NCBI GenBank assembly: GCA_026874595.1 | Contig: CM049310.1 | Location: forward strand, 46,475,058 to 46,539,057 | Reading direction: 5' to 3' | Length of the DNA: 64,000 nucleotides | Source of the DNA: Sipunculus nudus | Lineage: Eukaryota; Annelida; Sipuncula; Golfingiida; Sipunculidae | In this document: one piece after another, positions 6,321-64,000 of the stretch | Layout: the number at the start of each line of letters is the position of its first letter | Position numbering within the stretch: the first letter of the stretch is position 1 | Notes under the pieces: model-generated | The model's database searches: none | Told to the model about the DNA's origin: nothing | Seen by the model: the letters and a program-made list of their open reading frames with translations, nothing else | Made by a program: the position numbers and the translations under genes

Positions 6321-6452
6321 GCGTAAGTGTTGAGGATATGCGACGGTACCTGGTATCCGCGTTCAATCCCCACCGGTCCAGGACGGTGTACAGTGGGGAT
6401 AAACCGAGAGGATGGCCTGATGAAGTGAACTGGAGGGCTATTAGTTACTTAA
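6321..6452 (+). CDS. Internal exon E1 of an unrecognised gene
   Basis: The exon is bounded by a polypyrimidine tract ending TTTTTTTTGCAG at 6,320 and a strong donor GTAAGTAA at 6,453. It is 132 bp and phase 1 at both ends. It encodes about 44 residues, including DMRRYLVSAFNPHRSRTVYS, then GWPDEVNW and ending AISYL. The start shown is the acceptor, not a start codon; the first coding exon must lie upstream. Its last base plus the first two of E2 make a Ser codon, so the two exons join in frame. Two - strand relatives (46.6 and 63.5 kb) keep RYLVSAFNP and a WP patch, which supports real coding sequence. I do not recognise the family. The WP-x-V-x-W patch is only loosely reminiscent of part of the NRF1/erect-wing DNA-binding region, and no claim is made. 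Confidence 0.72.
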
Positions 6453-9420
6453 GTAAGTAAAAATTCACACTCTGTATCAAATTAGGTCACAGTGACCTAT
6501 ATTCCATGAGCTACAGGCTGAACAATTATTTATAGCACCCTGAAAACCTATTCTTTGGATTGTGTGTCCAAGAGTGCCAAACAAATTAAATTAAGGTAGT
6601 TTAAGTTGAAAAAATGTCACATTAATCTTGGAACCGAGACTACCATATTGCACCTGTATGCTTGAGCACCTAAGAAAATGTAGATACCTCAAAATTAGCA
6701 GTAATCACAAAATTTTGATGATGTTTATCATAAGACCATCAAAATATGCAAAAATCTGATTAGGTGCTGCCACCTAAGTTGATCTTCTTCACGCGATCCA
6801 AAATTATTCCTTTTCTCACAGAATTCAGAAGATACGAAACCTTCCACTTTAACTTCATTGTTAATTAAGGCCATCCCTGGGGGGGGGGGGGGGGTCACAT
6901 TGGTTGCCCATTGGTAGTTATGTTAGTGGACTATCTGTTAGATTCTCCGTCCATCTGTCACTGTCTTAAGTGCCCATTATCTCAAGAATTTTTTGCTGTG
7001 AATTTTATCTTAAGATCAGTCCCTGTAGGAGCCCCATGTTAGGATTTTCCCCACAGATAAAATACAGAATCACACCGATTTTAAGTTTAAAATCACAAAA
7101 TGGCTGAAATTTTGTCTGCATTTTGTGTGATGGTTATTACTAAGCCAAAACAAATACTGCCAGTCTGTTAGTTACAGATAGTGGTCAGGGAGCGATAACA
7201 GTCTGGCGGCTACTGTAATTTTGCATTATATCAAATAATGTTCATCCCCTCAGCACATCAAAAAGACTTATAAACCCTAGTGCTACAGTAGACCTGGGCT
7301 GCTGGGGCTGTGTCTGGATCATTCAGGCACCAGGAAATGTGGTTGTTCCACCTTGCCCAAGAACAGCCTACTTTATCAAAGAGGTAACTCATTAATGGGT
7401 CATTCTGATTGTAGTTTGAGGGTTGATGTAGGTAGCTTTGATATCTTACACCATAAAAAATCCAATATGTCCATGCATTCTTATGTTCCTTCTGTTTGCA
7501 TTATCTTAAGAATTATTTGATCAATATGCTCAAAAGTATTATCATTATGATTGGATCAGACCCATCAGAACTCCTATATAACTGCCCACCGGTGATCTTA
7601 AAATTTATTTTATATACATTTCCCCCAAAAATTGTCCAGTAATTGCATTAAAATATACAAATCATGATTTGTACCAAAAGTAAAATATGAATGATCCAAA
7701 TCGAGCATGTATATGACTTTTTGGCTGTGATCATTAGGGTCATGCTTGAAAAATGTTGCCCTATAATGATTGGGTGTCCTTCAAACTCCTGTGTGGGGAT
7801 GTTTGCTTTCAAATTTCAGACTCTTGTTAAATCCTATATGTATGACAGACAAATACATGAAGGCCTTTCCTAATAACTTTATAGATAGTGTCATTATCTT
7901 GGTCCCTTTTAGATTATTTGTGGTGATATGTTTTAGACCATTTCCACATCAAATATGGCCATATTGTTGTAACTCGCTAATCTCTATAGCGTAACCTTCA
8001 TGTTCCCAAACCTCTAGTTACTTCTTTGGTCATTATCTTAAGAACTATTCAACACAGTGCTGTCAAATTTTAATTGAAGACAGGCTGCTATGGATATGTA
8101 AAATTAATTTACAAACCCAAATAAGTCGATTAATTTGCCTGAAATTTTATATAGTGATTGGCAGTATGGAGAAAATGTCAAAAGAAACCCAGGCCAGTGA
8201 GAAATCTAAGATGTGCTGTTTCATGAGCCTTGGCATAATTGGCCCTGAATGAGGATCTTTACATTTCCATTCATATATCATGCATAATTAAATATACCAG
8301 GAATAGCTGCAGCTGTCTGCAACAGATATGACAGTAATATAATTATCATGCTGCTTAATCGTATGTGCATGTAAGCTACAAGTTAGGCTTCCAGTACATA
8401 TATGGTAACCTATTGTCTGTTAAACAAAAATGGTGTATATTCACCTTTTCCCTGGATTATAGGCAGAAAATATAACACTTGACTTTCATATCATGTTTAA
8501 AGTTGCCTTAAACAATGAAAAATTAATGAGGTTGATTCTTTCTAATAAGCACCAACTGACTGTATGACTTTGTGAACCAAATGGTCTTTGCCTAAAGTAT
8601 TAATAATTTAGCAGTTGGATTAAAATTAGGCCACTCTGGTCCCATAAATATCTATGCAGTGGTTTTAGTCATGTCAGTTTACGCTGAGCATCATGGAATA
8701 TGGACCATGATTTGTTGACTACTCTGAATTCCCTAAGAGTACCATCGAAATGCATTATAATGAGGGCTCTAACAATTCACTTGTTAACCAATATGTAGAG
8801 ATATTGGCGAGGTATTCATATTCATGATATTTGTGAAAGGCGAATTATCACAAAAATAAAACCATGCGTTGAGGCCCTTTGTGGAAGGCAAGTTGAAAGA
8901 AGATTGACATTTATTTTAAATTATAATATAACTTGTATGTTCAGAGATTTCCAGTTGAATGAAATGCGATTATATGAACAGTATGGTTCAATGTTACCTA
9001 GAGTTTGCTCCATATATTAAGAATTTGCGCATATATTATTAACTATAATTAATTAATATGATAATTGATATCTTTGTGTAGGACTTTAATATGATGAGAT
9101 GGCAAAAATGGAACTTTCACAAAACACTGAAAGGTGGAAATTTGTGAAATTTTTACCCAGTGAATATGAAGCTAACCACAGTATACTATCAGGAGAAAGA
9201 GCATTATTACAGGCCTCCCAACATCTATATTGAGTTCCCAATCAGAAAAAAGCTTGGTAATTTTGTGGTGTAAGAGCAGTTCAAATAAAAATCATTAAGG
9301 CAGAGAAAAAATTCTGTTCATCATTCACTGTAAGATTTTAGACATTTAATCTGTTTATATCTGAAATAATTATTTGAAGGGCTTTAATAAACACAAATTT
9401 CCCTTTTCTGTATTCCACAG
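6453..9420 (+). other. Intron between E1 and E2 (about 2.97 kb)
   Basis: It starts GTAAGTAA and ends TTTTCTGTATTCCACAG. A run of 16 G lies at 6,879-6,894. Otherwise it is AT-rich and largely unique, with no tandem array or convincing internal exon. A worn mollusc-element terminus lies near 8,675-8,715. The small ORFs at 7,691-7,994 show no sign of coding. Confidence 0.65.
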
Positions 9421-10133
9421 GTGAGCACGATGTGATGTTAGTCTTTCATCACTATCGTGCATATTTGACAGACCCAGATGAATGGTTAGGAGACTTGTTG
9501 ACAGAGGCAGAGAACCGAGGTTACAGGCAGGGTAGACTTTATCAAAAGAGGCGGATGCAGGCGCGGCTTGATGCACGGGATCGCGAGCTGCGCCGAACCA
9601 GAGAGCAGCAGAGGGATCACGAATTTGATCATGCTGCCTCTCTGGTTGGTCGGAGACACAGGGAAACCCAAACTGATGAAGTAAGGGCTCCACGTCAAAC
9701 ACATGCTTCTCATCATTCATGTAGGCGGGGGAGGAAGAGGGCCCGGGATGACCCCGGTCCTGGGCCTGATGACAACCCCCCTCCCAAGCGCCCTCGAATC
9801 TCATTTCAGGATGAAGGTAGAGCACAGAACAGACCTGTAGCACATGTAAAAGGAATCAGAAGACAGGCTTCTGCTATTGTCCAGCCACCAACAGCAACCA
9901 TAACGGCCCCTTCACCCCAGCTGCAGCTGCCAGCCCAGCCAGCAGTGCAGCTGCCACTGCCACATCGGCGCCACCGCCAACCCACCCAGCGTGACGCAGT
10001 TCATGCCGCCGCCACCCTACCCAGGGTGGTACAGCTGCCACCACCACCCCAACCAGCAGTGCAGCTGCCACCAACGCCCCAGCCAGTTGTGCAGCTGCGT
10101 CAACCCCAGCCACCTGGGCAACTGCCCAGGTAG
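9421..10133 (+). CDS. Exon E2: basic coiled, NLS-bearing, Q/L/P-rich protein part
   Basis: The acceptor TATTCCACAG ends at 9,420, and phase 1 matches E1. The open frame encodes about 236 residues and ends at TAG (10,131-10,133). In order: an acidic helix-like start (EHDVMLVFHHYRAYL, DEWLGDLL); a highly charged R/E/Q segment, about residues 30-75, that looks helical or coiled (YQKRRMQARLDARDRELRR); two basic clusters resembling nuclear-localisation signals (RRGRKRAR, PKRPR); then a tail of repeated QLP/PQPAVQLPP motifs. A nuclear role is inferred from composition only. An upstream ATG start within the exon is unlikely because the frame continues into E1. Alternatively the exon ends at 10,129, where CAG|GTAG forms a candidate donor overlapping the stop. 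Three degraded or partial - strand copies lie at 27.0-30.8 kb. Confidence 0.75.
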
Positions 10134-10135
10134 CC
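10127..10135 (+). other. Candidate splice donor overlapping the E2 stop codon
   Basis: The sequence CAG|GTAGCC contains both a plausible donor (GT at 10,130-10,131) and the in-frame stop TAG (10,131-10,133). If spliced here, E2 ends in phase 2. The - strand E3-like exon has an acceptor (TTTCCAG) that opens in phase 2. The - strand E2 copy C keeps the same CAG|GTAG. Confidence 0.35.
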
Positions 10136-10262
10136 CCCTTCCCAGCCACTCAACCGTCTTCTTGCCACCATTATGAGAGCCACTCACCAGTAAAAAAAGG
10201 ATGGGGGTTTGAAAGGGGGGAAAATTGAAATCTTTAGGGTTTCGCTTCCAAAAAAAACTATC
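10134..10262 (+). other. Conserved 3' flank of E2
   Basis: The 130 bp after the stop match the sequence downstream of - strand E2 copy C (30,275-30,395 in + coordinates): CCACTCAACCGTC, GAGAGCCACTCA, GGGTTTGAAAGGGGG and a TTCCAAAAAAAA run occur in the same order. It could be 3' untranslated sequence or the start of the next intron. No AATAAA follows closely. Confidence 0.6.
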
Positions 10263-11728
10263 AAGGCCGTTTTAGCAGACAGACTGGTTTGTTTAAATAC
10301 CATGCATTTCCAGTATAACCCTCTCACCATAACAACCTGTCTTCAGACATTCTTGTTAAGGAAGAACAGTATTATAAATTGTGTTCATAAAGTGGACACA
10401 ATCCTGTTCATAATGTAAATTTCCGTAAGCCTTCAGTTGTGATTTTGGAACATCTCCTTTGTCACAGTTGCTTAAAGGGACCTATTCACAGATACATTGT
10501 GCTATACATGTACATGAAGTACGGTGATTTCCCCTAAAAAAAATTGTACAGTATTCGCAGCATTTTGTCTTAAAACCATTTGCGTACTCCTATACACCAG
10601 TTGAAAAAAACTAGACCAACAAGACCAATGCTGCTGAACAAACCTGGCATGCATGCCACATATTAAAAAAAAAACTGAACAGTGGAGCTTACTTAATCAA
10701 GATTTTTCAAGCTTCAAACTGGTGTTCTCTTCATGTCTCTTTTACTTGTTTTGGGGTTGTCAAGATTGCGCAAGATCAGACCCCTATCAGGTCATGCTGT
10801 CTTGTTACGGTAAACATGCAGACACATGGACTGTGTTTACCCAAACATAAACCATAAGGTACAAAACGGATAAAATCTGTACCAGGATTGTTTTGCTGGA
10901 AAACCTTTAATTGGGCAAAATGAACTATTGGTGAAACGATACACCTAGGTATTATATAGCAAATGTGTGTATCTTAATGAAAAGTACCATATACAGTGAT
11001 TAAATATATTGTATTAATTTGTCACATTGATCACTGAATCTTGTATTTTATTTTGTAATGTAAAATGTTAAAACACACAGGAAATGTCCTTGAAAATTGT
11101 AAGCCTGTTATCATTAAGTGTATGAACTTTCTGATCCCTTTTGCTGCCCCTTTAAATCTCCTGTTTGTTAAGGCTAGTGATTTATGCTGCACTTGTCCTT
11201 AACTGCTGTTGGTGACTGGACTATAGAAGATGTTTTTAAATGAAAAATATAACATGACTATGTTATCTTTATGCCAAATGTACCAAAGTCATTCATATAT
11301 GGCACTCTTGGTCCCACTCACTGCACCATACAAACTGACTTGCATGCATTGAAAAGCAGGCAAAATTGAACAGAAACTAAAACATCCTGTTTTGCTTTCC
11401 TTTAGTGTCCCATGTTAACTCAGTTTGTCAGTATTTAGTATTTGTGTTGATCTTTGTCACATGATTTAGGCGCAATGCGAGTGAGTTGATTTCTTCAGGT
11501 CTGTTTAAAGTTCCAAAGTAGTTGATTATGCAAAGATTAAGGAAGTTATCGTCTTAGATTTAATATAAATTTTGTCATAATTAGTATAAAGTTAAATTTT
11601 TCATTTTCTATTGCAAATAAATAAACGGTTAATTTAATACTGTACAGACATATCATATATACAAATATATATTATATAAATCCATTTATATATAAATCAT
11701 GGTTTTATATGAAAGTGACTATTTAGCT
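10263..11728. other. No gene seen; downstream of E2
   Basis: Unique AT-rich DNA. The longest ORFs (10,209-10,418 and 10,653-10,850) lack paralogues elsewhere in the window or convincing splice sites. A TATA-rich stretch lies near 11,650-11,705. It is the E2-E3 intron if the third block belongs to the gene. Confidence 0.5.
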
Positions 11729-12060
11729 ATTAGTGCAGTACCAGTATAGACAACGGGTGTTCTGGTGCACCTTCTTTTCAGGACATTTTAACCCACCTCA
11801 GGCACCTGATGGTCAATCTGTCTTCTTAGAAAAGTGAAGGGTCTGGAATGGTATGACCCCCTCAATACTTCAGAACACTTCTCACCCTCCCCTCAGCCCC
11901 CAACCAGGGCTCGGGCATCTCTTGGGTGGGTCACTGGGGCTGTGGATAACACCAGGATCGCGCTCCCAGCAGATTTCCCAGCCCATCCTGAACATCTTCC
12001 GTGCATTATCTGCACCAGATGCAGTTCAGCTTCTGTTGATGCATGATGATGAAGGAAAAC
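11729..12060 (+). pseudogene. Third homologous block E3 (+ copy), degraded
   Basis: This block aligns almost without gaps, and inverted, with 18,305 down to about 17,950. Shared phrases are ATTAGTG, GTATAGA, TTTCAGGAC or TTTCCAGGAC, CCTCCCCTCAG and CAGATTTC. A good acceptor, CTTCTTTTCAG, precedes 11,782. In the frame that is open in the - copy, this copy meets stops soon after the acceptor. It is then open from about 11,810 to 12,046, encoding EHFSPSPQPPTRARA and LPADFPAHPEHL, which align with SECFPTSPQTPTSDS and LPPDFNHPNPEQL on the other strand. So it reads as a paralogous exon that has lost its upstream frame, unless splicing differs from what is assumed. Confidence 0.5.
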
Positions 12061-12144
12061 CCATGGAAAAGTCTGGGTTTTGTTGACAAGCATGAAGTTG
12101 GGAGTACCAGCATCCTGTCAAGTTGTTAGGTGGTACTAGGACAG

Positions 12145-14627: not shown

Positions 14628-16009
14628 TACCGTAAAATCTCCACTTCAAACCGCGGTTTAATCAAGAAATTAAAAATCTTTAAATCAGGTTTTTTCCTAA
14701 AAGCACTGCGGTTTTTACTAGAAGGGTTTCCTAAATATCTTCCAGGCAGACATCGTTTATGGGCCGGTGAGGTGGCGATAATATGGTGATTTTTAAGGCT
14801 GCCCATAGCAGCAGTCTTGCATGCATGGGAGCCATGTGTAAATTTATTATTTATGATTATTTGTTATTTTTAAATTAAATGTTGCTGATTATCTATCATG
14901 CGATATATAAATTGTTATAAAAATCTTAGTAATTGTCACCAAATCATACGTTTATAACACCCCTACTGTAACACAGCGGCCCACTTTGTCGGGCATTGTC
15001 AAGCAAAATTGAAATAAATGCCTACTTTTAAACCCATTTGCAGCATTATATAGCAACGTTTATTTGTTTGAAATGTAAAATGAATAAAAAACTTTTTGTA
15101 AAGGGTCTCACAATGGTGGACGTTCGTTTTAAAATTAAGATTGAGTGCCGCCATGTGCTGAAACGCTTCTGCTAAGAATATTTTGAACGGCTGTTGGTGG
15201 TAAACACAACAGCCAACTATCCCGTCCTCGCTTGCCCTGCGCAATGCTGCCTTGACAAAATGGCTCCCCACATGGGAAACTTTCTTCAAGAAAAAAACTT
15301 GCTTACCCCGACTGGCCACTTTAATTTTACTATAAAATCACTCGATTTCACGTGTCATGTTTCCTATACATGCGTATCTCGACAAGGTAACATCAGTTAC
15401 TTTTATACTTAGTTAAGTTGACCAGCGATGTTTTCAAATGCACCAGCAAATTGTGACATGGAGCGAAGTCAACGTACTATGTGACGATGATAATACCGAA
15501 GGAACTGGTATGAAAATGATTTGAATCTTCCGAGTAATTCAAGAAAATGGAATTTTCATCATAAATTAAGATTTCAAAATATTACTTTTAGACTTAAAAT
15601 ATACAGTGACTTGAAATGGATCAGCAGAATATTTTCTAAAATATAATAGAAAATCAGTAGTAAACAAGAATACAGCACGGCATATTAAATCTGTATAAAC
15701 ACGCAGAGATTAACAGGCCCTTACGACTTCCAAAACTTCATGCTTGAGTGAACCTGCAAAATGTGTTTTGATGTGTTTATATAAAATGACCAAGAAATTT
15801 TATAGTTTACAGGAATGTCAGAGTCGCATGTTGATTTCTAGATGATAGCTTGATTGTCTTGTGTCAAATCATTCCCTAGGGAAAGTTGGTGCAGTTTTAA
15901 AGGGGGGTTCTTAGTATTTGAGCCCCTGGCGGTGTCTCACCTGGGGTTTCGGCAAAGTCTGGGTGCGGTTTTGATCGGAAGTGCAGTTTTAACTGGAGAT
16001 TTTAGGGTA
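14628..16009. mobile_element. Non-autonomous DNA transposon, copy 1 (TA target)
   Basis: Left end TA|CCGTAAAATCTCCACTT; right end the inverse, AACTGGAGATTTTAGGG|TA. The ends are terminal inverted repeats of at least 20 bp followed by AACCGCGG / GCGGTT motifs. The body is about 1.38 kb and carries no transposase-like frame. It is directly repeated at 24,253-26,153. The + orientation is arbitrary. A - strand frame opening MASRGKQVFFLKKVS (15,319 downward) is shared with copy 2 but diverges after about 15 residues, so it is probably not a protein. Confidence 0.85.
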
Positions 16010-23879: not shown

Positions 23880-24254
23880 TATCCTGTAGTATTACTCATT
23901 TATTAATCAGAAAAGACTTAAACAATATTTTCAAAGCTGATACCAAGATGATTAACTTCTTGGTGTTAAAAACTCCTTAAAGCAGTAATCTACTTTAAAA
24001 AAATGTTAACATAATTTTCATTCCTGCTTATTGCATATTTTAATTTCTTTGTGTTAAATATACTTTCTCTACAGCAGTACTCTATATCAGAAAACTTTTT
24101 CAAAAAATTTTCAGTGCCGCTTCTTGAATAAAAACTTCTTGGTGTAAAAAGAGACTAGAGCAGTAGTCTTTATATATAGTCTAAAAAATTATTTTCAGTG
24201 CTGCTTATCGAATGTTTAAATTCTTGTTGTTGAAAGCCTTTCTCTTAAGCAGTA
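23880..24254. repeat. Tandem array, unit about 85-90 bp, split by a transposon
   Basis: The phrases AGCAGTA(A/C/G)TCT, TTTTCAGTGC(C/T)GCTT and TTCTTG(G/T)TGTTAAA repeat four times. The array is interrupted at 24,253 by the TA transposon and resumes at 26,152 (GTCTCTATCAAAAACACTTA...ATCAGTGCTG). Confidence 0.75.
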
Positions 24255-26569: not shown

Positions 26570-27015
26570 TCAATCATTTTCAGCTTTTCCTTTTGAACTC
26601 TTCCCCTTACAGATTAGTGGCTCTCTAAAAGGCTGTTTGTGGGCTGTTGAAAACAGTTGGATAGGCCAGAAAGCAGTAATTTTCAGCTTCTCTTTTTAAA
26701 TTTCCTTCTTCATCTTACAGTTTAATGCCTCTCTGAAAGGCTGCTATAAATGCTGCTGAAGACAGTAGGATAGGCCCAGAAGCAATCATTTTAAGCCTCT
26801 CCTTTTGAACTACCTCTTCTTCTTACAGTTCAGTGGCTCTCTGAAAGGCTGCTATTAGTGCTGCTGAAGACAGTAAGATAGGCAAAGGAGCTATCATTTT
26901 AAGCTTCTCCTTTAAAACTCCTTTCTCTTACAGTTCAGTGGCAAGAGGCTATTATTAGTGCTGTTGAAGACGGTAGGAAAGGCCCAGAAGCAATATTTTT
27001 CAGCTTCTCTGTCTA

Positions 27016-27690
27016 AACAAGGTAGATGGGGTGGCAGCAGCAGCTGTACTGCCCTAGGCAAGGGTGGCAGCAGCGTGAGCTGTGTGATGCTAGGTTTGTT
27101 GGCGCCAATGTGATGGTGGCAGCTGCGCTGCTGGCTGGGGTGGTAGCTGCATGGGTGGTTGGGGTGGCAGCTGCACCGATGGAGGAAGCTTGCGATAGCA
27201 GAAGCCCATCTTCTGATTCCTTTTACACTTGCTACCTGTCTGTTCTGTGCTCTACCCTATCCTGAAATGAGATTTGAAAGTGCTTGGGAGGGGGTTGTCA
27301 TCAGGGCCAAGACTGGGGTCATCCCTGGCCCTTTGACTCCCCCCTCTTTCATGATTGATGTGAAGCACATGTTTGACATGGAGCCCTTACTTTGTCAGTT
27401 TAGGTGTCCCTGTGTCTCCAACCAACCAGAGAGGCAGCATGATAAAATTTGTGTTCCCCTTGCTGCTCTCTGGTTCGGCACAGCTCCCGGTCATGGGCAT
27501 CAAGCTGCACCTGCATCCACCTCTTTTGATCAAGTCTACTCAGCCTGTTACTTCTGTTCATTGCATCTCTTAACAAGTCTCCTAACCATTCATCTAGGAC
27601 AGTCAAATATGCACAATGGTGATGAAAGACTCTTCACACTGTGTTCACCTGTGGAATACAAAAAAGGGAAAATTGTGTTTTCGTGCCCCT
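27016..27690 (-). pseudogene. E2-like copy A of the inverted paralogue, broken
   Basis: On the - strand the intron end TTTTGTATTCCACAG is kept up to 27,649, and the exon follows with GTGAACAC...CTTTCATCACCATTGTGCAT. A frame aligned with E2 is open only in part (27,606-27,400: DEWLGDLL, DQKRWMQ, DAHDRELCRTREQQG, AASLVGWRHR). Stops and shifts elsewhere break it, including just after the acceptor. The Gln/Leu/Pro tail is present but scrambled (27,020-27,180). Flanking minisatellite units abut on both sides. It is a decayed copy. Confidence 0.75.
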
Positions 27691-28004: not shown

Positions 28005-28460
28005 ACAGGGTGGTTGGGGTGGCAGCTGCAGCTGGGGTGGAGAGGCAGTTATAGTTGCTGTTGGTGGTTGGACAATAGCAGAAGCCTGTCTTCTGATTCC
28101 TTTTACATGTGCTACATGTCTGTTCTGTGCTCTACCTTCATCCAGAAAATGAGATTCGAGGGCACTTGGGAGGGGGCTTGTCATCAGGCTCAGGACCAGG
28201 GTCATCCTAGGCCCTCTTCTTCCCCCACCTGTTGGGTGTATCTCAGTGTGATATAAGTATTTGACATGGACCCCTTTGGGTTTCCTGGTGTCTCCCATCA
28301 AATTCAGTATCCCACTGCTGCTCCCTGGTACTGGGCTTCAAGCTGCGCCTGCATTAGCCTCTTTTGATAAAGTCTACCAGGCCTTAAGTGATGAAAGACT
28401 AACATCACATTGTGCTCACCTGTGGAATATAGAAAAGAGAAATGTGTGTTAATTAAAACA
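28005..28460 (-). pseudogene. E2-like copy B of the inverted paralogue, internally deleted
   Basis: The acceptor TATTCCACAG is kept (ends 28,420). The exon matches E2 closely at both ends: CACAATGTGATGTTAGTCTT at the start and the stretch encoding GRAQNRHVAHVKGIRRQASA near the end. It has lost the piece encoding the DEWLGDLL region and part of the basic segment. It stops abruptly at CCACCCCAACCACCCTG (28,010), where minisatellite sequence begins. Nucleotide identity to E2 is visibly higher than for copy A. Confidence 0.75.
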
Positions 28461-29199
28461 CTTCATATGACATCTTACAGTAAGTGCCTCTTGGAAAGGC
28501 TACTATTTGTGTTGTTGAAAACCATACGATAAGACCAGAAGCAATCACTTTCAGGTTCTCCTTTTTAACTCCCCTCTTTCCCTTACAGTTTTGTTGCTCT
28601 CTGAAAGATCATTATTAGTGCTGTTGTAAAAAGTAGGCCCATGAGAATTCACTATCAGGGGTTTATACGCCAGAACATAGTGTAGGCCAGAATCTTACAT
28701 CTTACAGAATCTTACAGGTGGACATCACAGAAGTGATGAGTTGTTAAGATTGAAAGATTTTTCCAGAAACCTTTCTTGACAAGTTGGGACGAAGGAATTC
28801 CAGACATATGGGCAAGGGAAGTGGGGATTGCCAGGACTTCATGTGTGCTGTTACATTTTCAGCTTCTCCTTTTAACCTCCCCCTCCCCCCTTAGTTTAGT
28901 GGCTTTCTGAAAGGCTCCTATTAGTGCTGCTGAAAGCAATAAGATAGGCACAGAAGCAATCATTTCAAGCTTCTCCTTTTTAACTCCCCTCTTCCTCGTA
29001 CAGTTTTGTGGCATTGGGATGGGCTGTTTTAAGTGCTTTTGAAGACAGTAGAATAGGTGCAGAAGCAATTAATCGTTTTCATCTTCTCCTTTTAAAATCC
29101 TCCCCCTTACAGTGGCTCTCTGAAAGGCTGTTATTAGTGCTGTTGAAGACAGTAGAATAGGCCCAGATGCAATCATGTTCATCTCATCCTTAGGACACA

Positions 29200-30274: not shown

Positions 30275-30770
30275 GGAATAACTTTTTTTTTGGAAGCAAC
30301 ACTAATGATTTTAATTTACCCCCTTTCAAACTCCCACCCCTTTTTATACTGCTGAGTGGCTCTCTTAAGGTGGCAAGACGACGGTTGAGTGGCTGGGAAA
30401 AGGCTACCTGGGCAGTTGCCCAGGTGGCTGGGGTTGTGGCAGCTGCAAAACTTGCTGGGGCGTTGGTGGCAGCTGCACTGCCGGTTGGGTTGGTGGTGGC
30501 AGCTGTGCCACCCTGGGTACGGTGGCGGCGGCATGAGCTGCGTCACGCTGGGAGGGTTGGTGGTGGCGCCGATGTGGCCATGGCAGCTGCACTGCTGGCT
30601 GGGTTTGCAGCAGCAGCTGTTCCTGTGGTTAAAGTGCAGCTGCATGGGTGGAGGGGCAGAAACAGTGGCTGGTGGTGGCCACAGTTTTTAGATGATGGTT
30701 GGGTGGCTGCCCAGATGGCTGGCTGGGCAGTTGCCATAGTCATTGTCTTGCAGATGGCATTGAGCCACTG
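30275..30770 (-). pseudogene. E2-like copy C: 3' part with open frame and flank
   Basis: Only the tail of the exon is present. From 30,592 to 30,404 the - strand frame matches E2 residue for residue over most positions (PHRRHHQPSQRDAAHAAAT, RVAQLPPPTQPAVQLPP, QPQPPGQLPR) and stops at the same TAG. Upstream (30,593-30,770) is more Gln/Pro-coding repeat not found in E2. Downstream, the E2 3' flank is kept for over 100 bp. The coiled and basic parts are missing from this piece. It may be the real last exon of the inverted paralogue or a relic. Confidence 0.65.
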
Positions 30771-32032
30771 AATCTTAAACCTCTCTCTCCTGGAGATACA
30801 AATTTGACCAAATATCTGATAGACTATATAATAATATGCTGTCCCCCATTAATGTTCTTATATAAATATGAAAATTCTCAGGTGCTTGGGCATGAGACAG
30901 TTTCCGTCCCAGGAGCGGGGTCATCCTGGGTCTGATTCTGAACCCTGTCCTGATGGGTTAAAAATGTTTTAATTAAAAGATTAAATGTTTTTAATGCTCT
31001 GGTCTTTTGTTGATGCAGCAGGTTTTTCTTCAGTTTAATCTAGCTCAAATTTCCTTACATTTAGCCCTTTCCCGACCTGTTTTCTCTTTACACATTTTAT
31101 TACCACTTGCGGGTCTGTCAAATATTTTTAGGTAAGTTGCACTTAAAAATTAAAAAATAACCAAAAAAAATTAAAAAAAGAAATAACCAAAAAAATAAAA
31201 AAACAAACTAAAAAAAAATAAAAAAACAGAAAATGCAAAAAAAAAATGTTTGTTTTATTCAAAATTGATAAACTTTATAAAATATTGATTAGTGCACGAG
31301 AAAAGCCCTACAGTTCAATTCTCGGTCCTTTCCTTTCGGGAATGCGGGCACCAGATATCTGAGCTATCATCAACATTTAAAAGGTAAGAACTAGATAAGA
31401 TTTAATAGATAAGTTTTTGTTTCATTTATCAGTATCCTATATATATATATATATATATATGTATATTATAAATGGTATATATATAACTTATATATACTCA
31501 CATAGAGAACATAAACCTGTATACTCGCACATAGAACATGAACCTGTATATCTAAATGTATATTGGCCAAAAATTTTAAAAGGTTGGATTCTCAGACACT
31601 TTTTCATATATCAGTGCAGAAAGATAAATTTCATTACCTTGTTATTATAATTCTTAAAAAGTGTCATATAATTGCCCTACCCCTGTGCTTGTGGTTGTTC
31701 CTAACATCTAAGGACAACAGCTAAACAGGTAAAATGTACATCATACCCAGATGACTAAATTTGACAAAATTTGTATTTATATTTTGGAAAGAAATGTCAG
31801 ACTAGCAAAGTTTAAAATTGGTAAATTTTATTGAAAATGAAAATAAATTTGCTGCAAGGGTCAAAATTGACACATGTAGTGCCTGAGAAACCAACCTTGT
31901 TTTGGGGGCTTGCTCCCCTGCCATATTGTTAGGACAAAATACTATTAAGATGCTGTACATCAGATCATTCAGTCCTGACCCTTGTATTTCAAAATATCTG
32001 AAAGAAAGCGCTGCAAGTATCACTTCCCTTTT
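30771..32032. other. No gene seen; A-rich and TA-rich stretch
   Basis: It holds an A-rich low-complexity run (31,140-31,250), a TA microsatellite (about 31,438-31,470), and otherwise unique sequence. No exon was recognised. Confidence 0.55.
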
Positions 32033-46395: not shown

Positions 46396-47140
46396 ATAAA
46401 CAAGAGTGTGTAGAGATAAAGAAATCTTGGAAAATTAAACACCATATATTATGTTTGCAGGATTGTGCTTTCATAATCATTTTATAGTAGTAGGAAAATT
46501 GTTTACTGGAAACCACATGGATGACTTTAAATTTTTTTCCCAGTCAGCTGAGCTTGTGATGTGAAGTATTTACTTAATAAAACTCCAGTTAACATTATCA
46601 GGCCATCCTCTAGGTTTCTCCCCACTGTACAGAGTCCTGGAGTGGTGGGGATTGAACGCGGATACCAGGTACCATCGCATAGCAACATTTACCCCTGCAA
46701 AAAAGTGTTATATAAGAAAATGTTGAAGAGCGCAGACAATCAGCTAAAACATAAAAACTTTCCATTTGAAAATATATGGTTTAAATATTCATGGAAAAAT
46801 GACCTCATTGTAAAGTGGTAAGAATGTCTACAAAGAAAAAAGTCCAAAGATGGTAAAATGTAGAAAGTGTTTATCAGAAAAAATAATGTACATGAAACAA
46901 AATGTCTTCTTTGTGCAAGATCAGAAAAAAATTATCCATTTTGTATTCTTTTTCTGTTTACTTTAATCAAAATTTGCATTTTCTTCTGTCATTTTATCAT
47001 TTAAACTTTATATCCTGTATCATTGTGTAAAATGTTGCCTTATTTTGTAACTTAATGGTATAGGCCTAGTGGCAGTTCTGTTCGGTCACATGGGCCTGAA
47101 GCATTTTATCCATAAATATGGTTATAATGGTATTTTCTTC
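46373..47140. repeat. Segment duplicated at 62,866-64,000 (direct)
   Basis: The two segments share, in order: CATGGCC(A)...GGGCCACTTG, GAAATCTTGGAAAATTAAA, TTTGCAGGATT(G/C)TGCTTTCA, GGAAAATTGTT, TCCCAGTCAGCTGAGCTTGT, the E1-like exon, GTTTAAATATTCATGGAAAA, AAAATGTCTTCTTTGTGCAA and GAAGCA(T/G)TTTATCCAT. The right-hand copy also carries an insertion of roughly 370 bp. Confidence 0.85.
46574..46694 (-). pseudogene. E1-like exon of the inverted paralogue, copy 1
   Basis: On the - strand TTTTTTGCAG precedes 46,694, and the exon reads MRWYLVSAFNPHHSRTLYSG, then KPRGWPDNVNWS, before a donor-like TTAA|GTAAAT at 46,573. Against E1 it lacks about nine bases near its end, and the last codon phase no longer matches (phase 2 instead of 1). 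It may therefore be dead, or use a slightly different junction. Identity to E1 is high in the RYLVSAFNP and RGWPD patches. Confidence 0.6.
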
Positions 47141-47219
47141 TATGAACAGTCTTGGTTTCTGTCCTGTATCTTTTTTTTATTTAAAATAATTATTACTGGT
47201 GGCTTACTTATGATGAATA

Positions 47220-48060
47220 ACTAGATTGTCAATCCCTCTTGCTCTATGGTTTTCTGAGAGGTCTGAAAATACACATGAAAAAAAACTAAGTGAAGCAAAT
47301 ATGAAGGAAAGTCCAAGGTTATGCCTGTAGTTAATATTAATCTAAACATCAGTGAACTATTTCTCCCTGCGGTAAACTGTCCTGGAATAACAATGATTGC
47401 ACATGGAAACCAGACGCCTTCACACATCGTCAATATTTACACCATGAATGGCCACATTATCTACCCCCCTTGCCTTGTGGTGGTTGCTGATGTCTGAAAA
47501 TACACATGACAAAAAATTAGTGAAGCAAATATGAAGGATAGTCCAAGATTATGCCTGTAGTTAATATTAATATGAACATCAAAGTTAACTTTTTCTCCCC
47601 GCAGTAAACCAACCGTGAATAACAATAATTCACATGGAAAGCAGACACCCTCACATGTCATCAACATTAAAATCATGAATGGCCATGCATATTCTCCACC
47701 CCCCTTTCCTTGCGGTTGTCCTTGATGTCTGAAAAAACACATGACAGAATATTAAGTGAAACAAATATGAAGGAAAGTCCAAGATTATGCCTGTAGTTAA
47801 TATTTATGTAAACATCCAAGTTAACTATTTCTGCCTGCAGTAAACTGTCCTGGAATAAAAATGATTGCACATGGAAATCAGACACCTTCACACATCGTCA
47901 ATATTTACTTACCATGAATGGCCACATTCTCCCACCTGTGCTTGTGGTTATCCTTAATGTCTGAAAATAGTCGTCACAAAAAATTAAGTGAAGCAAATAT
48001 GAAGGAAAGTCCTAGATTATGCCTGTAGCTATAATATTGATACATCATCAAAGTCACCCA
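47220..48060. repeat. Tandem array, unit about 233 bp, 3.6 units
   Basis: GAAGCAAATATGAAGGA(A/T)AG recurs near 47,292, 47,521, 47,759 and 47,994, each followed by ATTATGCCTGTAGTTAATAT and, later in the unit, GTAAAC...GAATAA, CACATGGAAA(C/T)CAGAC and ATGAATGGCCA. The - strand frames in it are repeat translations. Confidence 0.85.
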
Positions 48061-50271: not shown

Positions 50272-53200
50272 GTGGCTCTTCACCTTGAACAGTCCTACAC
50301 TTGATTCCAGGTTGCGTTAACACCATCCTTTACTAAGAAATGGCTTTTACCTTGAACAGTCCTACACTTGATTCCAGGGTGAGTTAACACCATCCTTTCC
50401 TAAGGAATGGTTTGTACCTTGAACAGTCCTACACTTGATTCCAGGTTGCGTTAACACCATCCTTTCCTAAGGAATGGCTTAACCTTGAACAGTCCTACAC
50501 TTGATTCCAGGTTGCGTTAACACCATCCTTTCCTAAGAAATGGCTTTTACCTTGAACAGTCCTACACTTGATTCCAGGTTGCGTTAACACCATCCTTTCC
50601 TAAGAAATGGCTTTTACCTTGAACAGTCCTACACCTGATTCCAGGTTGCGTTAACACCATCCTTTCCAAAGGAATGGCTTTTACCTTGAACAGTCCTACA
50701 CTTGATTCCAGGTTGAGTTAACACCATCCTTTCCTAAGAAATGGCTTTTACCTTGAACAGTCCTACACCTGATTCCAGGTTGAGTTAACACCATCCTTTC
50801 CTAAGGAATGGCTTTTACCTTGAACAGTCCTACACTTGATTCCAGGTTGAGTTAACACCATCCTTTCCTAAGGAATGGCTTTTACCTTGAACAGTCCTAC
50901 ACTTGATTCCAGGTTGCGTTAACACCATCCTTTCCTAAGAAATGGCTTTCACCTTGAACAGTCCTACACTTGATTCCAGGTTGAGTTAACACCATCCTTT
51001 CCTAAGAAATGGCTTTTACCTTGAACAGTCCTATACTTGATTCCAGGTTAAGTTAACACCATCCATTACTAAGAAATGGCTTTTACCTTGAACAGTCCTA
51101 CACTTGATTCCAGGTTGAGTTAACACCATCCTTTACTAAGAAATGGCTTTTACCTTGAACAGTCCTACACTTGATTCCAGGTTGAGTTAACACAATCCTT
51201 TACTAAGGAATAGCTTTTACCTTGAACAGTCATACACTTGATTCCAGGTTGAGTTAACACCATCCTTTACTAAGGAATAGCTTTTACCTTGAACAGTCAT
51301 ACACTTGATTCCAGTTTGAATTAACACCATCCTTTACTAAGGAATAGCTTTTACCTTGAACAGTCCTACACCTGATTCCAGGTTGAGTTAACACCATCCT
51401 TTCCTAAGAAATGGCTTTTACCTTGAACAGTCCTACACCTGATTCCAGGTTGAGTTAACACCATCCTTTCCTAAGGAATGGCTTTTACCTTGAACAGTCC
51501 TACACTTGATTCCAGGTTGCGTTAACACCATCCTTTCCTAAGGAATGGCTTTTACCTTGAACAGTCCTACACTTGATTCCAGGTTGAGTTAACACCATCC
51601 TTTCCTAAGGAATGGCTTTTACCTTGAACAGTCCTACACCTGATTCCAGGTTGAGTTAACACCATCCTTTCCTAAGAAATGGCTTTCACCTTGAACAGTC
51701 CTACACTTGATTCCAGGTTGCGTTAACACCATCCTTTCCTAAGAAATGGCTTTTACCTTGAACAGTCCTACACTTGATTCCAGGTTGAGTTAACACCATC
51801 CTTTACTAAGGAATAGCTTTTACCTTGAACAGTCCTACACTTGATTCCAGATTGAGTTAACACCATCCTTTACTAAGGAATAGCTTTTACCTTGAACAGT
51901 CCTACACTTGATTCCAGGTTGAGTTAACACCATCCTTTACTAAGGAATAGCTTTTACCTTGAACAGTCCTACACCTGATTCCAGGTTGAGTTAACACCAT
52001 CCTTTCCTAAGAAATGGCTTTTACCTTGAACAGTCCTACACCTGATTCCAGGTTGAGTTAACACCATCCTTTCCTAAGGAATGGCTTTTACCTTGAACAG
52101 TCCTACACTTGATTCCAGGTTGAGTTAACACCATCCTTTCCTAAGAAATGGCTTTTACCTTGAACAGTCCTACACTTGATTCCAGGTTGCGTTAACACCA
52201 TCCTTTCCTAAGGAATGGCTTTTACCTTGAACAGTCTTACACCTGATTCCAGGTTGCGTTAACACCATCCTTTCCTAAGGAATGGCTTTTACCTTGAACA
52301 GTCCTACACTTGATTCCAGGTTGAGTTAACACCATCCTTTCCTAAGAAATGGCTTTTACCTTGGACAGTCCTACACTTGATTCCAGGTTGAGTTAACACC
52401 ATCCTTTCCTAAGAAATGGCTTTTACCTTGGACAGTCCTACACCTGATTCCAGGTTGAGTTAACACCATCCTTTCCTAAGAATGGCTTTCACCTTGAACA
52501 GTCCTACACTTGATTCCAGGTTGCGTTTACACCATCCTTTCCTAAGAAATGGCTTTTACCTTGAACAGTCCTACACTTGATTCCAGGTTGAGTTAACACC
52601 ATCCTTTCCTAAGAAATGGCTTTTACCTTGAACAGTCCTACACCTGATTCCAGGTTGAGTTAACACCATCCTTTCCTAAGAAATGGCTTTCACCTTGAAC
52701 AGTCCTACACTTGATTCCAGGTTGCGTTAACACCATCCTTTCCTAAGAAATGGCTTTTACCTTGAACAGTCCTACACTTCATTCCAGGTTGCGTTAACAC
52801 CATCCTTTCCTAAGGAATGGCTTTTACCTTGAACAGTCCTACACTTGATTCCAGGTTGAGTTAACACCATCCTTTCCTAAGGAATGGCTTTTACCTTGAA
52901 CAGTCCTACACCTGATTCCAGGTTGAGTTAACACCATCCTTTCCTAAGAAATGGCTTTTACCTTGAACAGTCCTACACTTGATCCCAGGTTGCGTTAACA
53001 CCATCCTTTCCTAAGAAATGGCTTTTACCTTGAACAGTCCTACACTTGATTCCAGGTTGAGTTAACACCATCCTTTCCTAAGGAATGGCTTTTACCTTGA
53101 ACAGTCCTACACTTGATTCCAGGTTGAGTTAACACCATCCTTTCCTAAGGAATGGCTTTTACCTTGAACAGTCCTACACTTGATTCCAGGTTGAGTTAAC

Positions 53201-53932
53201 ACCATCCTTTCCTAAGGAATGGCTTTTACCTTGAACAGTCCTACACTTGATTCCAGGTTGCGTTAACACCATCCTTTCCTAAGAAATGGCTTTCACCTTG
53301 AACAGTCCTACACTTGATTCCAGGTTGAGTTAACACCATCCTTTCCTAAGAAATGGCTTTTACCTTGAACAGTCCTACACCTGATTCCAGGTTGAGTTAA
53401 CACCATCCTTTCCTAAGAAATGGCTTTTACCTTGAACAGTCCTACACCTGATTCCAGGTTGAGTTAACACCATCCTTTCCTAAGCGATGGCTTTCACCTT
53501 GAACAGTCCTACACTTGATTCCAGGTTGTGTTAACACCATCCTTTCCTAAGGAATGGCTTTTACCTTGAACAGTCCTACACTTGATTCCAGGTTGTGTTA
53601 ACACCATCCTTTCCTAAGGAATGGCTTTTACCTTGACCAGTCCTACACTTGATTCCAGGTTGCGTTAACACCATCCTTTACTAAGGAATGGCTTTTACCT
53701 TGAACAGTCCTACACTTGATTCCAGGTTGAGTTAACACCATCCTTTCCTAAGGAATGGCTTTTACCTTGAACAGTCCTACACTTGATTCCAGGTTGCGTT
53801 AACACCATTCTCTCCTAAGGAATGGCTTTACCTTGAACAGTCCTACACTTGATTCCAGGTTGCGTTAACACAATCCTTTCCTAAGGAATGGCTTTACCTT
53901 GAACAGTCCTACACTTGATTCGAGGTTAGCAC
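50272..53932. repeat. 67-bp satellite array, about 54 units
   Basis: Unit: CTTTTACCTTGAACAGTCCT, ACACTTGATTCCAGGTTGAG, TTAACACCATCCTTTCCTAA, GGAATGG. Variants segregate at a few sites: GAG/GCG, CACTTG/CACCTG, AAGG/AAGA, TTTCC/TTTAC, TTTTACC/TTTCACC. Three successive units with ACTAAGGAATAG occur at 51,199-51,333 and again from 51,802, exactly 603 bp (nine units) later. Since 67 is not a multiple of three, it cannot code a simple peptide repeat. Confidence 0.95.
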
Positions 53933-59534: not shown

Positions 59535-60046
59535 GCAAAAACTGCGGTAGCCAAAACTGCTTCAAATTTAGGTTCCCATGGCCAGGGTAACCATCACATA
59601 TTTTGTGAAACAACATTTTTCTTCATTATTTGGAAAATTAAACATGATCATACAAGCCTCTGATGTCAAATACTACCACACAGCAAATATTTTGATCCAG
59701 CCCTTGGGATGGACATTCTGGTAGGACTTGTTTCCTGAATTGATGGCTGGCTGCTATCAGTTTATTAGATAAAGGTCTGAATGTCATGTTGTCATGGCTA
59801 AAGTAGATGGCTGTTCATCCTGGCTTTGAGTCTGAGACAAGGTTTCCATCTGACAAGGAGTCCCCAAGTTGCCACCTGACTCTGGCGGCCTTTTGTCTTA
59901 CACTGGGTACAGATTCATCATGGCTCTTTGCAGCAACTAAATCTTTCTTATGTCTCCTCAAGCTGTCAGAAGCTGTAAGGAAATAGGACCGGTGGTAACT
60001 GATTGGGAACGCAACACGGCCGCGTTGCGGTCACCCAGATTAGGCT
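59535..60046. other. No gene seen
   Basis: Unique sequence between the transposase relic and the C-tract. Confidence 0.45.
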
Positions 60047-60097
60047 CCCCCCCCTCCCCCCCCCCACCCCTTCCCCCCCCCCCCCCCCCCCCCCCCG
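60047..60097 (+). repeat. Poly-C-rich tract, about 50 bases
   Basis: Long C-runs broken by single T, A or TT. They create false Pro- or Gly-rich frames on both strands. Confidence 0.95.
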
Positions 60098-60111
60098 GAG
60101 ACAACCACGGG

Positions 60112-60411
60112 ACCAGACAAAGGAATCGTGAAGGGGGGACCCCCAACTACTGGGGAATGAGACCAATCTTGGAACAAAGCCCACTTGTCTGAAGTCCAGG
60201 TTTGGCAATAAAAACAGGGAACTGCCGGACCCCGGCAGGAGTCATGGTTTGAGCAATGGAAACAAGTGGGGTGGGAATCCCAAACCGGGATTACAGAACC
60301 ACAAGACACACAGTAAGTGGGGTTCTTCAAGGCGGGAAGGGAAAAGAAACACAACTTACAGTCAGTTGGCAAACTCCACCGTACAAACCAAAATGTGGAC
60401 GAATCGCGCAA
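60112..60411 (-). mobile_element. Possible fossil: Cys/His-rich gag-like piece
   Basis: The - strand is open here and encodes a compact Cys/His pattern: CVSCGSVIPVWDSH, CFHCSNHDSC, CFYCQTW. This C-x2-C...H-x2-C-x2-C...C-x2-C layout, followed by a Trp-rich stretch, resembles the zinc-binding start of gag-like proteins of tyrosine-recombinase retroelements in invertebrates. It lies upstream, in - strand sense, of the fragment at 57,935-58,265, with the pogo-type relic between. It is broken. It could instead be a small host zinc-binding exon. Confidence 0.3.
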
Positions 60412-61539
60412 TCTTTTGTCAAACAGTGGTTGTCGCTAAACAGGCATCTGTTTATCTGGTGTTGCTTTGTCAGCTTGGAAGTCTGTGCTAGGCTCTTTTT
60501 CTTCAGCTGCTTTTCCCCTTGATTCTTTAGGGGGCACTTGAATGATATGCCCTCCTTTCTTCCTCAGTCTAGAATACTGACCAGGCAGGAGGTTTCTGCT
60601 TAATAACTGTTTTTATATTTTTTGAGAAGTTTCACTGGGCTTTTCAGCAGGCCACTGTGTCACAGGTCAGGAAATGCTTGATTCCATACTTTTAAACAAG
60701 GCTATATAGTGTTAGTTTCACCCACATCCCTTTGGGTTTTATAATAAGGGCTGAAAATAAGGGCCCTGTAACACTTGGAAGTAACACTGATGTTTTCATC
60801 TTTTTTTAGGACAATGGGTCTATGGTACAGAATGTCCTTGCACTTCTTGCAAACATTCTGGTTGTTGAGAAGCCCCCATGCCTTCACAAGTCCTGGAACG
60901 GACACATTATTACAGAAACACATTTTAAATGTGTGGATTCATGATTTCAGTACACTAGATGAAACCACAGCTTGGCATGTATGAGAGCTTATGTTTGCTG
61001 TCATTCGGAAGTATCAAACATAGGGGAAAAAATACAGATTCAGAGTAATGTAATTTTAAGTTTTTAAGGAGATATGTCAAGGATCTCCCTAGACAATAAG
61101 TTAGGAGTTCATACATCCAAAAGTTACGTTTTTGCCATTTTGAGGGCAGAATGGCAAGATGGACAGCAGGGCAGGGTGAAGTCTGGTGGACAAATGACCA
61201 ATCACTACAGCTAAGCCTGACTGAAATCAGCCTATCTAAAACACTTAAAAAACTATATAAGCACAGCTTGGAGAGAAATAGACGCACACTCCATGGCACT
61301 GGAGAGACGTTGCCTGGACTCTGGTGGGGTCTTTATCCTTGGAATGTCAAAATCAATAAGCCAAAAATTGTAGCAGTCACGGGAATGTTAACCAGAACAC
61401 ATTCTAGTTCAAAATATATGTGGGTTCCTACTGGTATATGTGTCCATGTTTCAGATAGATTTCCTGTTTTGTTACTGTTGATTTGTATTTGTAATATATT
61501 CACTTACCCGAGATGGCATTGTGACTTTTTTCTTTCTTG
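60412..61539. other. No gene called; one Cys-bearing - strand frame
   Basis: The - strand frame 60,923-60,702 follows an acceptor-like CCGTTCCAG and has LLNNQNVCKKCKDIL and SVTSKCYRAL. The C-x2-C pair recalls zinc-binding transposase starts, but nothing else supports that. Frames on both strands at 60,955-61,549 are unrecognised. Confidence 0.35.
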
Positions 61540-62494: not shown

Positions 62495-62506
62495 TATATA
62501 TATATG

Positions 62507-62573
<67 letters not shown>

Positions 62574-62582: not shown

Positions 62583-62865
62583 GGGTGGGAATGAATTAAG
62601 AATGATGGGATTTATATTTGATGCCAAATATTATTTGATGCCAAATATATTTGTATACTGTTTCTGTATTAACCTTTGAATAAATTCACTATTAAAAACC
62701 TTACGGTTGTTCATTCTTGGATTGTTTTTATATTTAAGAAAAGTGCAGCAGTCATATGCCAAAGAAAAGAATAAAGCACAATAAATAAATACTTTTAATT
62801 TACATAAAGTACCACTCGGAATCCATTTTAGCCATGAAAGAAAAAAAATTAGTTTACAGGAGTTT
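62583..62865. other. No gene seen
   Basis: AT-rich flank; GATGCCAAATAT is repeated near 62,620 and 62,638. Confidence 0.5.
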
Positions 62866-64000
62866 CATGGCCAAGGGCCACTTGGTGTAACTAAAAACAA
62901 TTGTGGAGGTGACGAAATCTTGGAAAATTAAATTCACCACAAAGTTCATATGTACATAGATTAGGACACTGCAACACAACAGACATAGACACAATCTTCT
63001 GATTGGGGGGCAAACTGGCCCACCCAGAGTATGAACTAGACAGGAATTATGTACATAGTAAATATAATAAAATCCAAATTGTAGATGGAAATTACAACAG
63101 ATGTTGATAGTTGAGTGGTCAGCTGTAGAATGACTGTTTGGTATCCCACTGGTGGATAGGGATCTTTAATGCACTGATTGCTGATTGGATAATCACAGCC
63201 AATTAGCAGGTTCATAAAAAGCTGACCACTAGCATCATTAACGACCTGTATACATGTATGATAAATGTAACATTAAGCAAAGAGTGAAGGTGGACTCTGG
63301 ATAAACAATCCCATGAATTGAAGCCATATATTGTTTGCAGGATTCTGCTTTCATAATCCTTTTAGAGTAACAGGAAAATTGTTAACTGGAAACCACCTGG
63401 ATATCTTAATTTTTTCCCAGTCAGCTGAGCTTGTGACGTTCATACTTGTATTTACTTAAGCTTATAATAGAACTCCAGTAAACACCAGGCCAATCTTTCG
63501 GTTCACCGTACATCCTGGAGCTGAGGGGATTGAACGCAGAGACCAGGTACCGTAGAATATCATCATTATTTACCTTACCCCTGCAAAAAAAGTGTTATGT
63601 GTCAGAAAAAGTTGAAAAGAGCAGACAATGAGCTAAAACATATAAAACTTTACATTAAAAAGTCACATGGTTTAAATATTCATGGAAAAATTTCCTCAAT
63701 GTAAAGTGGTCAGAATGTCTACAGAGAAAAGTCACAAGATGGTAAAATGTAGAAAGTGTCAACAGAGAAAGAAAAGACAGCTAACAAAATGTCTTCTTTG
63801 TGCAAGCACAGAATATTATCCATTTTGTATTCTTTTTATTTTATTCATGCATATGTGGCAATTTCTTGCCATTTTATCATTTCAGCTATATATCCTGCAT
63901 GTATCATTGTGTAAAATGCAGGCTTATTTTGTAACTTGCGGGTAAAGGTCCAGTGGCACTTCTGTTCAGTGATATGGGCCCGAAGCAGTTTATCCATGAA
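62866..64000. repeat. Second copy of the 46,373-47,140 segment (direct)
   Basis: Homology runs from CATGGCCAAGGGCCACTTGG to the window end, where TTTATCCATGAA still matches, so the duplication continues past 64,000. About 62,940-63,315 is absent from the first copy. The frame at 63,682-63,945 is also broken in the first copy and is not called. Confidence 0.85.
63456..63580 (-). CDS. E1-like exon of the inverted paralogue, copy 2
   Basis: On the - strand TTTTTTGCAG ends at 63,581, and a donor TTAA|GTAAATAC follows 63,456. The frame is open across the exon: DDILRYLVSAFNPLSSRM, then EPKDWPGVYWSS and ISL. The last base leaves the same phase as E1. Compared with E1 from the RYLVSAFNP patch onward, the length changes are whole codons (near TVYSGDK and near DEVN), as expected under coding selection. 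The first about 20 bp align poorly, and the acceptor phase would differ from E1, so the 5' junction may be wrong or damaged. It is the best candidate for a working first-known exon of the inverted gene. Confidence 0.45.

What the first reader, a model, noticed from the sequence alone, without database searches (positions are those of the whole stretch)
6321..63580. One unrecognised gene present as two inverted, convergent relatives
Exons E1, E2 and the E3 block lie in order on the + strand (6.3, 9.4 and 11.8 kb). Homologues lie on the - strand in the matching order (63.5/46.6, 30.7-27.0 and 18.2 kb). All exon pairs face each other about a centre near 15 kb. The seen part is the exon similarity and order; that they form one duplicated gene is inference. 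The family (RYLVSAFNP...WP exon followed by a basic coiled, Q/L/P-rich exon) is not one I know.
Basis: partly seen in the sequence, partly recalled or inferred. Interest (0 to 1): 0.75.

Follow-up and report, generated by a model that had tools for sequence, protein, structure and literature searches.

The report
Probable gene facing decayed copies
An animal-type stretch of DNA holds the tail end of one probably working gene of unknown family and, facing it, several mostly broken copies of the same exons; it looks like ordinary gene duplication and decay, although the protein matched nothing in the curated libraries searched.

Summary
E1 (6321-6452 +) and E2 (9421-10133 +) have relatives on the - strand far above chance, in the order reported. 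The + strand pair looks like the 3' end of a real gene: good splice sites, matching phases (1-1, then 1), a 251-codon stop-free run.

The - strand is not one partner gene. It holds at least three decayed or decaying units: E1 at 63.5 kb; an E0 array plus E1 at 46.6-48.0 kb; an E0-E1-E2 relic at 30.3-31.7 kb. Two truncated E2 copies lie at 27.0-28.5 kb. E2 copies A and B carry stops and frameshifts; the two E1 copies differ from each other as much in exon as in intron. E3 is a diverged block with only a hint of former coding.

New here: a short upstream exon, E0, and a 232-bp tandem repeat in which E0 joins E1 exactly at the exon boundary, the best evidence that they are neighbouring exons of one message.

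Nothing matched in Pfam, NCBIfam, PDB or the contig collections searched beyond chance level. Function is inferred: a nuclear protein with a basic helix and P/Q-rich tail. No genome was held, so dispersal elsewhere cannot be excluded.

The parts
6321..6452 (+). E1, internal coding exon, phase 1-1, 43 full codons (VSVEDMRRYLVSAFNP...WRAISYL)
   Evidence: acceptor TTTTTTTTGCAG|GC and donor CTTAA|GTAAGT (GT at 6453) read; homologues
9421..10133 (+). E2, last coding exon, phase 1 acceptor, 236 full codons then stop: long basic helix, KR-rich NLS-like stretches, P/Q-rich tail
   Evidence: acceptor TATTCCACAG|GT; stop-free run of 251 codons, reached by 2 of 1000 shuffles; helix 18-87 in the model, pLDDT block means above 90 for residues 41-70
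10134..10257 (+). start of the presumed 3' UTR, conserved with the relic at 30.3 kb
   Evidence: 96 of 122 identical, falling to 77 of 162 beyond 10257
11535..12135 (+). E3 block; acceptor-like CAG before 11782, then in-frame TGA after 17 codons
17886..18496 (-). E3' block; open for 90 codons from the acceptor-like site (exon start 18250); a second frame is open for 113 codons
27021..27687 (-). E2 copy B, stops and frameshifts, 3' end truncated into the 108-bp satellite
28010..28468 (-). E2 copy A, large deletions and frameshifts, truncated in the same satellite context as B
30284..30970 (-). E2 relic of the compact unit: 3' coding part and UTR well kept (copy C), middle part poorly
   Evidence: nhmmer E 6.6e-39 (30642-30481) and 9.5e-5 (30968-30872); 0 of 200 shuffles for the middle part
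31304..31379 (-). E1 relic of the compact unit
   Evidence: score 113 against a shuffle maximum of 99 over 700 bp, 0 of 200; not among the nhmmer hits at E 5
31659..31712 (-). E0 relic of the compact unit
   Evidence: nhmmer E 0.003; score 88 against a shuffle maximum of 75, 0 of 200
46573..46694 (-). E1 copy c46, with an 8-bp deletion at its 3' end
47202..48054 (-). 232-bp tandem array: four E0 copies, three of them followed without intron by a truncated E1-like stretch, the fourth not
63454..63580 (-). E1 copy c63, internal indels -3, -6, -3, with an insertion at its 5' end

Best explanation
The + strand carries the 3' end of a probably working multi-exon gene; its earlier exons, E0 among them, lie upstream of the window or are too diverged to see. 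E0 (about 16 codons), E1 and E2 are joined in phase 1. The encoded C-terminus is a short E0-E1 segment, a long basic helix, NLS-like KR clusters and a disordered P/Q-rich tail; I infer a nuclear, nucleic-acid- or chromatin-associated protein. The - strand is an old inverted paralogous lineage that stayed under constraint long enough for exons to outlast introns, then was duplicated locally (46 and 63 kb units, the 232-bp E0-E1 array, E2 copies inside a 108-bp satellite) and decayed. Shown: homology, orientation, splice phases, lesions, exon-against-intron contrast. Inferred: transcription, nuclear function, order of events.
For: Exon identity of the + copy to the - copies is 75-93%; introns measured are at 48-55%, except the 80 bases before E1 at 71-73%. 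E1 copies c46 and c63 differ equally in exon (83.6%) and introns (83.1 and 86.7%), as expected for copies no longer constrained. In E2 the + lineage has 12 changes at 530 comparable sites against 42 for A and C together (two-sided binomial 5e-5); without CpG sites 8 against 34 (7e-5). The + copy keeps CpGs (o/e E1 0.94, E2 0.49) in a window at 0.28; E2 copies A and B have 0.08 and 0.17. Unit 3 of the array runs from E0 into E1 at the exact exon boundary: 55 of 83 bases identical without gaps, next best register within 10 bases 28.
Against: No transcript data. The 12 E2 changes on the + lineage are 10 nonsynonymous and 2 synonymous, 17% synonymous where 25-29% is expected without selection, so the slow + lineage does not show protein-level selection; in E1 the + lineage has 5 changes (3 nonsynonymous) against 9 and 14. 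CpG loss is not uniform: copy C has o/e 0.40, c46 0.48, c63 0.66. The introns are not wholly unlike: a permissive blastn carries the E1 match to c46 on to 6717, at 64.8% over exon and flanks. No + strand E0 was found in 1-6320: best score 19 against a mean of 19.9 in 30 shuffles. No relatives were found in the collections searched. Copy C has no lesion in 71 aligned codons, and c46 and c63 none inside the tested part, so parts of the - strand may have died recently or not at all.
Confidence: 0.6

Rival explanations
1. E0-E1-E2 is part of a transposable element or other dispersed repeat that landed several times here; the ordered, oriented pattern is partly luck.
For: Outside the + copy, E1 occurs at c46, c63, in the array and as a relic at 31.3 kb, and E2 at three places, in a window crowded with satellites and two copies of a TIR element. 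No match to a known host gene.
Against: Homology of + to - copies follows exon borders. None of 10 other open frames scanned, out of those listed, resembles a polymerase, integrase or transposase. Exons are in phase and in order on each strand. No search was aimed at element ends around the units; the whole-window repeat list shows as inverted pairs only the + against - exon matches, and its direct list was filled by one satellite.
Confidence: 0.2
2. The - strand is also a working gene, with tandem alternative E1 and E2 exons.
For: Internal indels of c46 and c63 are multiples of three (4 of 4), without stops in 40 and 38 aligned codons. Copy C keeps frame and stop codon. E3' is open for 90 codons.
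Against: c63 has a 5-base insertion at its 5' end, c46 an 8-base deletion at its 3' end (alignment). E2 copies A and B have 4 and 8 frame-breaking indels. c46 and c63 show no exon-intron contrast.
Confidence: 0.12
3. The duplication is an assembly artefact (uncollapsed haplotype or misjoin).
For: Inverted repeats and satellites are error-prone in assembly (general knowledge).
Against: Copies differ by 7-25% in exons and by about half in most introns measured, far beyond allelic difference.
Confidence: 0.03

Closest known systems
Birth-and-death gene family with a pseudogene cluster beside a surviving copy (general kind, recalled)
   Same: one intact-looking copy, several decayed neighbours, a segmental duplicate evolving without exon-intron contrast
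   Different: the protein matched no Pfam, NCBIfam or PDB entry above chance in the searches made
OTULIN (PDB 6i9c and relatives), weak sequence hit
   Same: 27 residues with a Y...N...TVY...P..WP pattern align to the E1 profile, E 0.96
   Different: E-value is at chance level; absent with the longer query; no Pfam hit
Exon-bearing tandem repeats (a satellite that took up gene sequence; recalled)
   Same: the 232-bp unit contains E0, its upstream intron end and 83 bases of E1
   Different: the E0-E1 joint inside the unit lacks the intron

Membership tests
Pseudogene (non-processed) of the + strand gene | disabling lesions in the parent's reading frame | tested here: inconclusive
   met for E2 copies A and B; not met for copy C (71 codons) nor inside c46 (40) and c63 (38); edge indels of c46 and c63
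Pseudogene (non-processed) of the + strand gene | exons evolve like introns | tested here: met
   c46 against c63: exon 92 of 110, introns 340 of 409 and 104 of 120; tested for this pair only
Processed (retro)pseudogene | intron absent at the junction | tested here: inconclusive
   seen for E0|E1 in the 232-bp units; other units keep separated exons; intron deletion through similar sequence at the E0 donor and the E1 start is also possible
Transposable element | common ends and many dispersed copies | not testable with these tools
   no whole genome held
OTULIN / OTU-type peptidase | significant sequence or profile match | tested here: not met
   Pfam scan of the three E1 copies gave 0 families; PDB E 0.96, absent
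OTULIN / OTU-type peptidase | catalytic cysteine region | not testable with these tools
   it would lie in exons upstream of those seen
BEN-like DNA-binding domain (resemblance recalled only) | Pfam match | tested here: not met
   0 families for E1 and for E0-E1-E2 joined; HMMER's filters drop most matches above about 0.1

The most novel reading that the evidence does not exclude
A lineage-restricted animal nuclear protein family, without relatives in curated libraries, whose exon joint E0|E1 was written back into DNA from a spliced message and then amplified as a 232-bp satellite inside a decaying copy of its own gene.
Probability: 0.2. Interest if true: 0.5.

Novelty: new member of a known kind. 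Interest (0 to 1): 0.3.

Why it matters
It points to an undescribed, fast-changing protein family and shows how a gene's exons can outlive their introns and then turn into satellite repeats. If the family proves to be expressed, the precise E0|E1 joint in a tandem repeat would be a small, testable case of message-templated repair or of clean intron loss.

Tried and rejected
OTULIN lead: one PDB hit at E 0.96, not seen with a longer query nor in Pfam; rejected as chance. Taq polymerase at E 0.095 and butyrophilin at 0.77 likewise. DUF6586 at E 0.028, 15.2 bits against a cut-off of 27, not seen; rejected.

IMG/VR hit L001: 18 residues matched, and the 8-residue search pattern had selected for them; 701 bases around it were looked at, no further likeness was tested. 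Taken as chance (inference).

X (14.63-16.01 kb) and X' (24.25-26.15 kb): direct repeats that do not fit the inverted order. X' has 27-bp terminal inverted repeats at 100%, X poorer ones; read as DNA transposons, not as gene parts.

A and C as two halves of one E2 copy: I joined them in the alignment. One search shows that A and B share their 3' joint with the satellite, and C lies behind E0 and E1 relics, so A and C are now treated as separate copies.

E2 remnant after c46 (44.0-46.15 kb): 8 of 50 shuffles reach the score; rejected. A weak match of the E2-side intron end to 46281-46156 (E 8e-4; 0 of 200 shuffles) is left open.

E3 as exon: no codon periodicity over the long alignment (mismatches 106 of 320, 101 of 327, 83 of 324). 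In the phase-1 frame of the core the third position is more changed (32 of 83 against 38 of 168; Fisher 0.011; one frame of three tested). Inconclusive.

No tRNA gene and no Rfam match at the gathering score in the window.

Literature: 'RYLVSAFNP', 'KPRGWP' and six repeat strings gave 0 papers; one search was a general search of which I saw the listing and abstract starts of 8 of 36 papers; no paper was opened and none is used.

Full report
What was checked. A self-comparison of the window finds the exon pairs of the finding on opposite strands, at E-values from 5e-23 to 1e-171, and translated searches agree for E1 and E2. So the similarity, strand and order are real. The 'centre near 15 kb' holds for E3 only: pair midpoints are 15.0, 18.6 to 20.2, 26.5 and 35.0 kb; the - strand side is stretched several fold.

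The + strand gene. E1 runs 6321-6452, with a T-rich tract and GCAG before it and GTAAGT after it; E2 starts at 9421 behind TATTCCACAG. E1 ends with one base of a codon and E2 supplies two, so the joint reads ...AISYL-S-EHDVML.... E1 itself begins with two bases, so an exon ending in phase 1 must precede it. The frame of E2 is open for 251 codons including intron-side bases; 2 of 1000 dinucleotide shuffles reach that on either strand. AlphaFold on E2 alone gives a helix over residues 18-87 (block means 82-97 for residues 31-80) and then disorder; overall pLDDT is 64.6. The E1 alignment gives two short helices at low confidence, pLDDT 65.3. The KR-rich stretches (RRGRKRARDD, KRPR) look like nuclear localisation signals; that label is recalled.

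A further exon, E0. The array 47261-48054 holds, on the - strand, a small exon-like stretch with TTTTCAG before it, in four copies (DIKDNHKHRWENVAIHG, DISNHHKARGVDNVAIHG, DLSENHRARGIDNLVIH and one with an insertion). Three are followed directly by an E1-like sequence; nhmmer finds it at 3e-8 and 2e-6 in two, and at E 1.9, not significant, in the third. In unit 3 the E1 part starts at E1's first base, in register without gaps: 55 of 83 bases identical, next best register within 10 bases 28. The reading frame crosses the joint as in a spliced message, but a TGA follows as the seventh codon. The E1-like part is truncated. The fourth E0 is not followed by E1-like sequence until c46, about 0.5 kb on. 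This is the nearest thing to transcript evidence in the window. Whether the joint came from RNA, from intron deletion between the similar donor and exon-start sequences, or is older than the intron, cannot be told.

More units on the - strand. A compact relic lies at 31.71-30.28 kb: E0 (nhmmer 0.003), E1 (0 of 200 shuffles; not among nhmmer hits at E 5), E2 middle (9.5e-5) and E2 3' part (6.6e-39), in order. E2 copies A and B lie at 28.47-28.01 and 27.68-27.03 kb and run into the same 108-bp satellite at a matching point. E1 c46 and c63 sit in a direct duplication of about 0.7 kb at 79%, which reaches the window end.

Dead or alive. Copy A has 1 stop in 128 aligned codons and 4 frame-breaking of 8 indels; B has 2 in 198 and 8 of 11. 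Copy C has no lesion in 71 codons; inside E1, c46 (40 codons) and c63 (38 codons) have only in-frame indels (1 and 3) and no stop, but c63 has a 5-base insertion at its 5' edge and c46 an 8-base deletion at its 3' edge. c46 and c63 are as different in exon (92 of 110 identical) as in introns (340 of 409; 104 of 120). By contrast, + against - copies: exon 109 of 131 (c46), 91 of 122 (c63), 507 of 626 (B), 348 of 402 (A), 200 of 216 (C); introns 116 of 239 (c46), 46 of 88 (B), 67 of 122 (A) (the E1 range used, 6321-6454, takes in two intron bases). I did not calibrate what unrelated sequence scores in such forced alignments, and a permissive blastn carries the c46 match into the intron, to 6717, at 64.8% over exon and flanks. 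The 80 bases before E1 are intermediate (49 of 67, 52 of 73). My reading: exons stayed alike while introns largely lost their likeness, and later duplication on the - strand was without constraint.

Rates. With three E2 copies aligned, the + lineage has changes at 11 of 395 and 1 of 135 comparable sites; A has 34 of 395, C 8 of 135, B 56 and 29; sites at which all three differ are left out of these counts. 12 against 42 gives 5e-5; without CpG sites 8 against 34 gives 7e-5. Against a simple reading: the 12 changes are 10 nonsynonymous and 2 synonymous, not fewer nonsynonymous than expected without selection. In E1, over 114 sites, the + lineage has 5 changes, c46 9 and c63 14. CpG o/e is 0.28 for the window, 0.94 in + E1, 0.49 in + E2 (0.68 in its first half), 0.08 in A, 0.17 in B, but 0.40 in C, 0.48 in c46 and 0.66 in c63. 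So the + copy has kept CpGs that A and B lost, while C, c46 and c63 are in between.

E3. The blocks 11535-12135 and 18496-17886 are 60, 69 and 59% alike in three parts. The + block has an in-frame TGA where the - block has TGG, in the frame that would follow phase 1; the - block is open there for 90 codons, but also for 113 codons in another frame. There is a third-position excess in the core, yet frame pairs 0-0 and 2-2 of the translated comparison score the same (74 and 73). E3 could be a lost coding exon, reached from the GAAG|GTAGAG site at 9817 or from E1; this is a suggestion only.

What it is like. Pfam gave nothing for E1, E2 or the joined forms apart from DUF6586 at 0.028 in one of them; NCBIfam nothing; PDB hits at E 0.095 or worse. 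Of 5 candidate stretches in the first IMG/VR scan none, of 4 in the second one, encodes a relative by tblastn; that one is taken as chance. Of 63 candidate stretches in GTDB genomes none does. No eukaryote genomes or proteomes could be searched, so absence of relatives is not shown.

Verdict. A probably live gene end facing an old, mostly decayed, locally multiplied paralogue. Ordinary in kind; the unmatched protein and the exon-joint satellite are the points of interest.

Noticed in passing
window 14628-16009 and 24253-26153: Two copies, in direct orientation, of an element with terminal inverted repeats beginning TACCGTAAAATCTCCACTT and CpG o/e near 1 in a CpG-poor window; probably a non-autonomous DNA transposon.
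   Followed up: partly
window 50273-53927: 54.6 copies of a 67-bp satellite, 96% matches.
   Followed up: no
window 26571-30100: Repeats related to a 108-bp satellite that surround and separate the truncated E2 copies.
   Followed up: partly
window 39575-43510: Complex array, units of about 136-156 bp, about 4 kb long.
   Followed up: no
   Followed up: no
window 60043-60435 -: 131-aa open frame with CxxC motifs (CVSC, CFHC, CFYC); only weak Pfam hits, FAM76 at E 0.55 and a zinc ribbon at 0.74.
   Followed up: partly
window 122-6240 +: Several diverged direct repeats, about 120-740 bp long, in front of E1; nature unknown.
   Followed up: no
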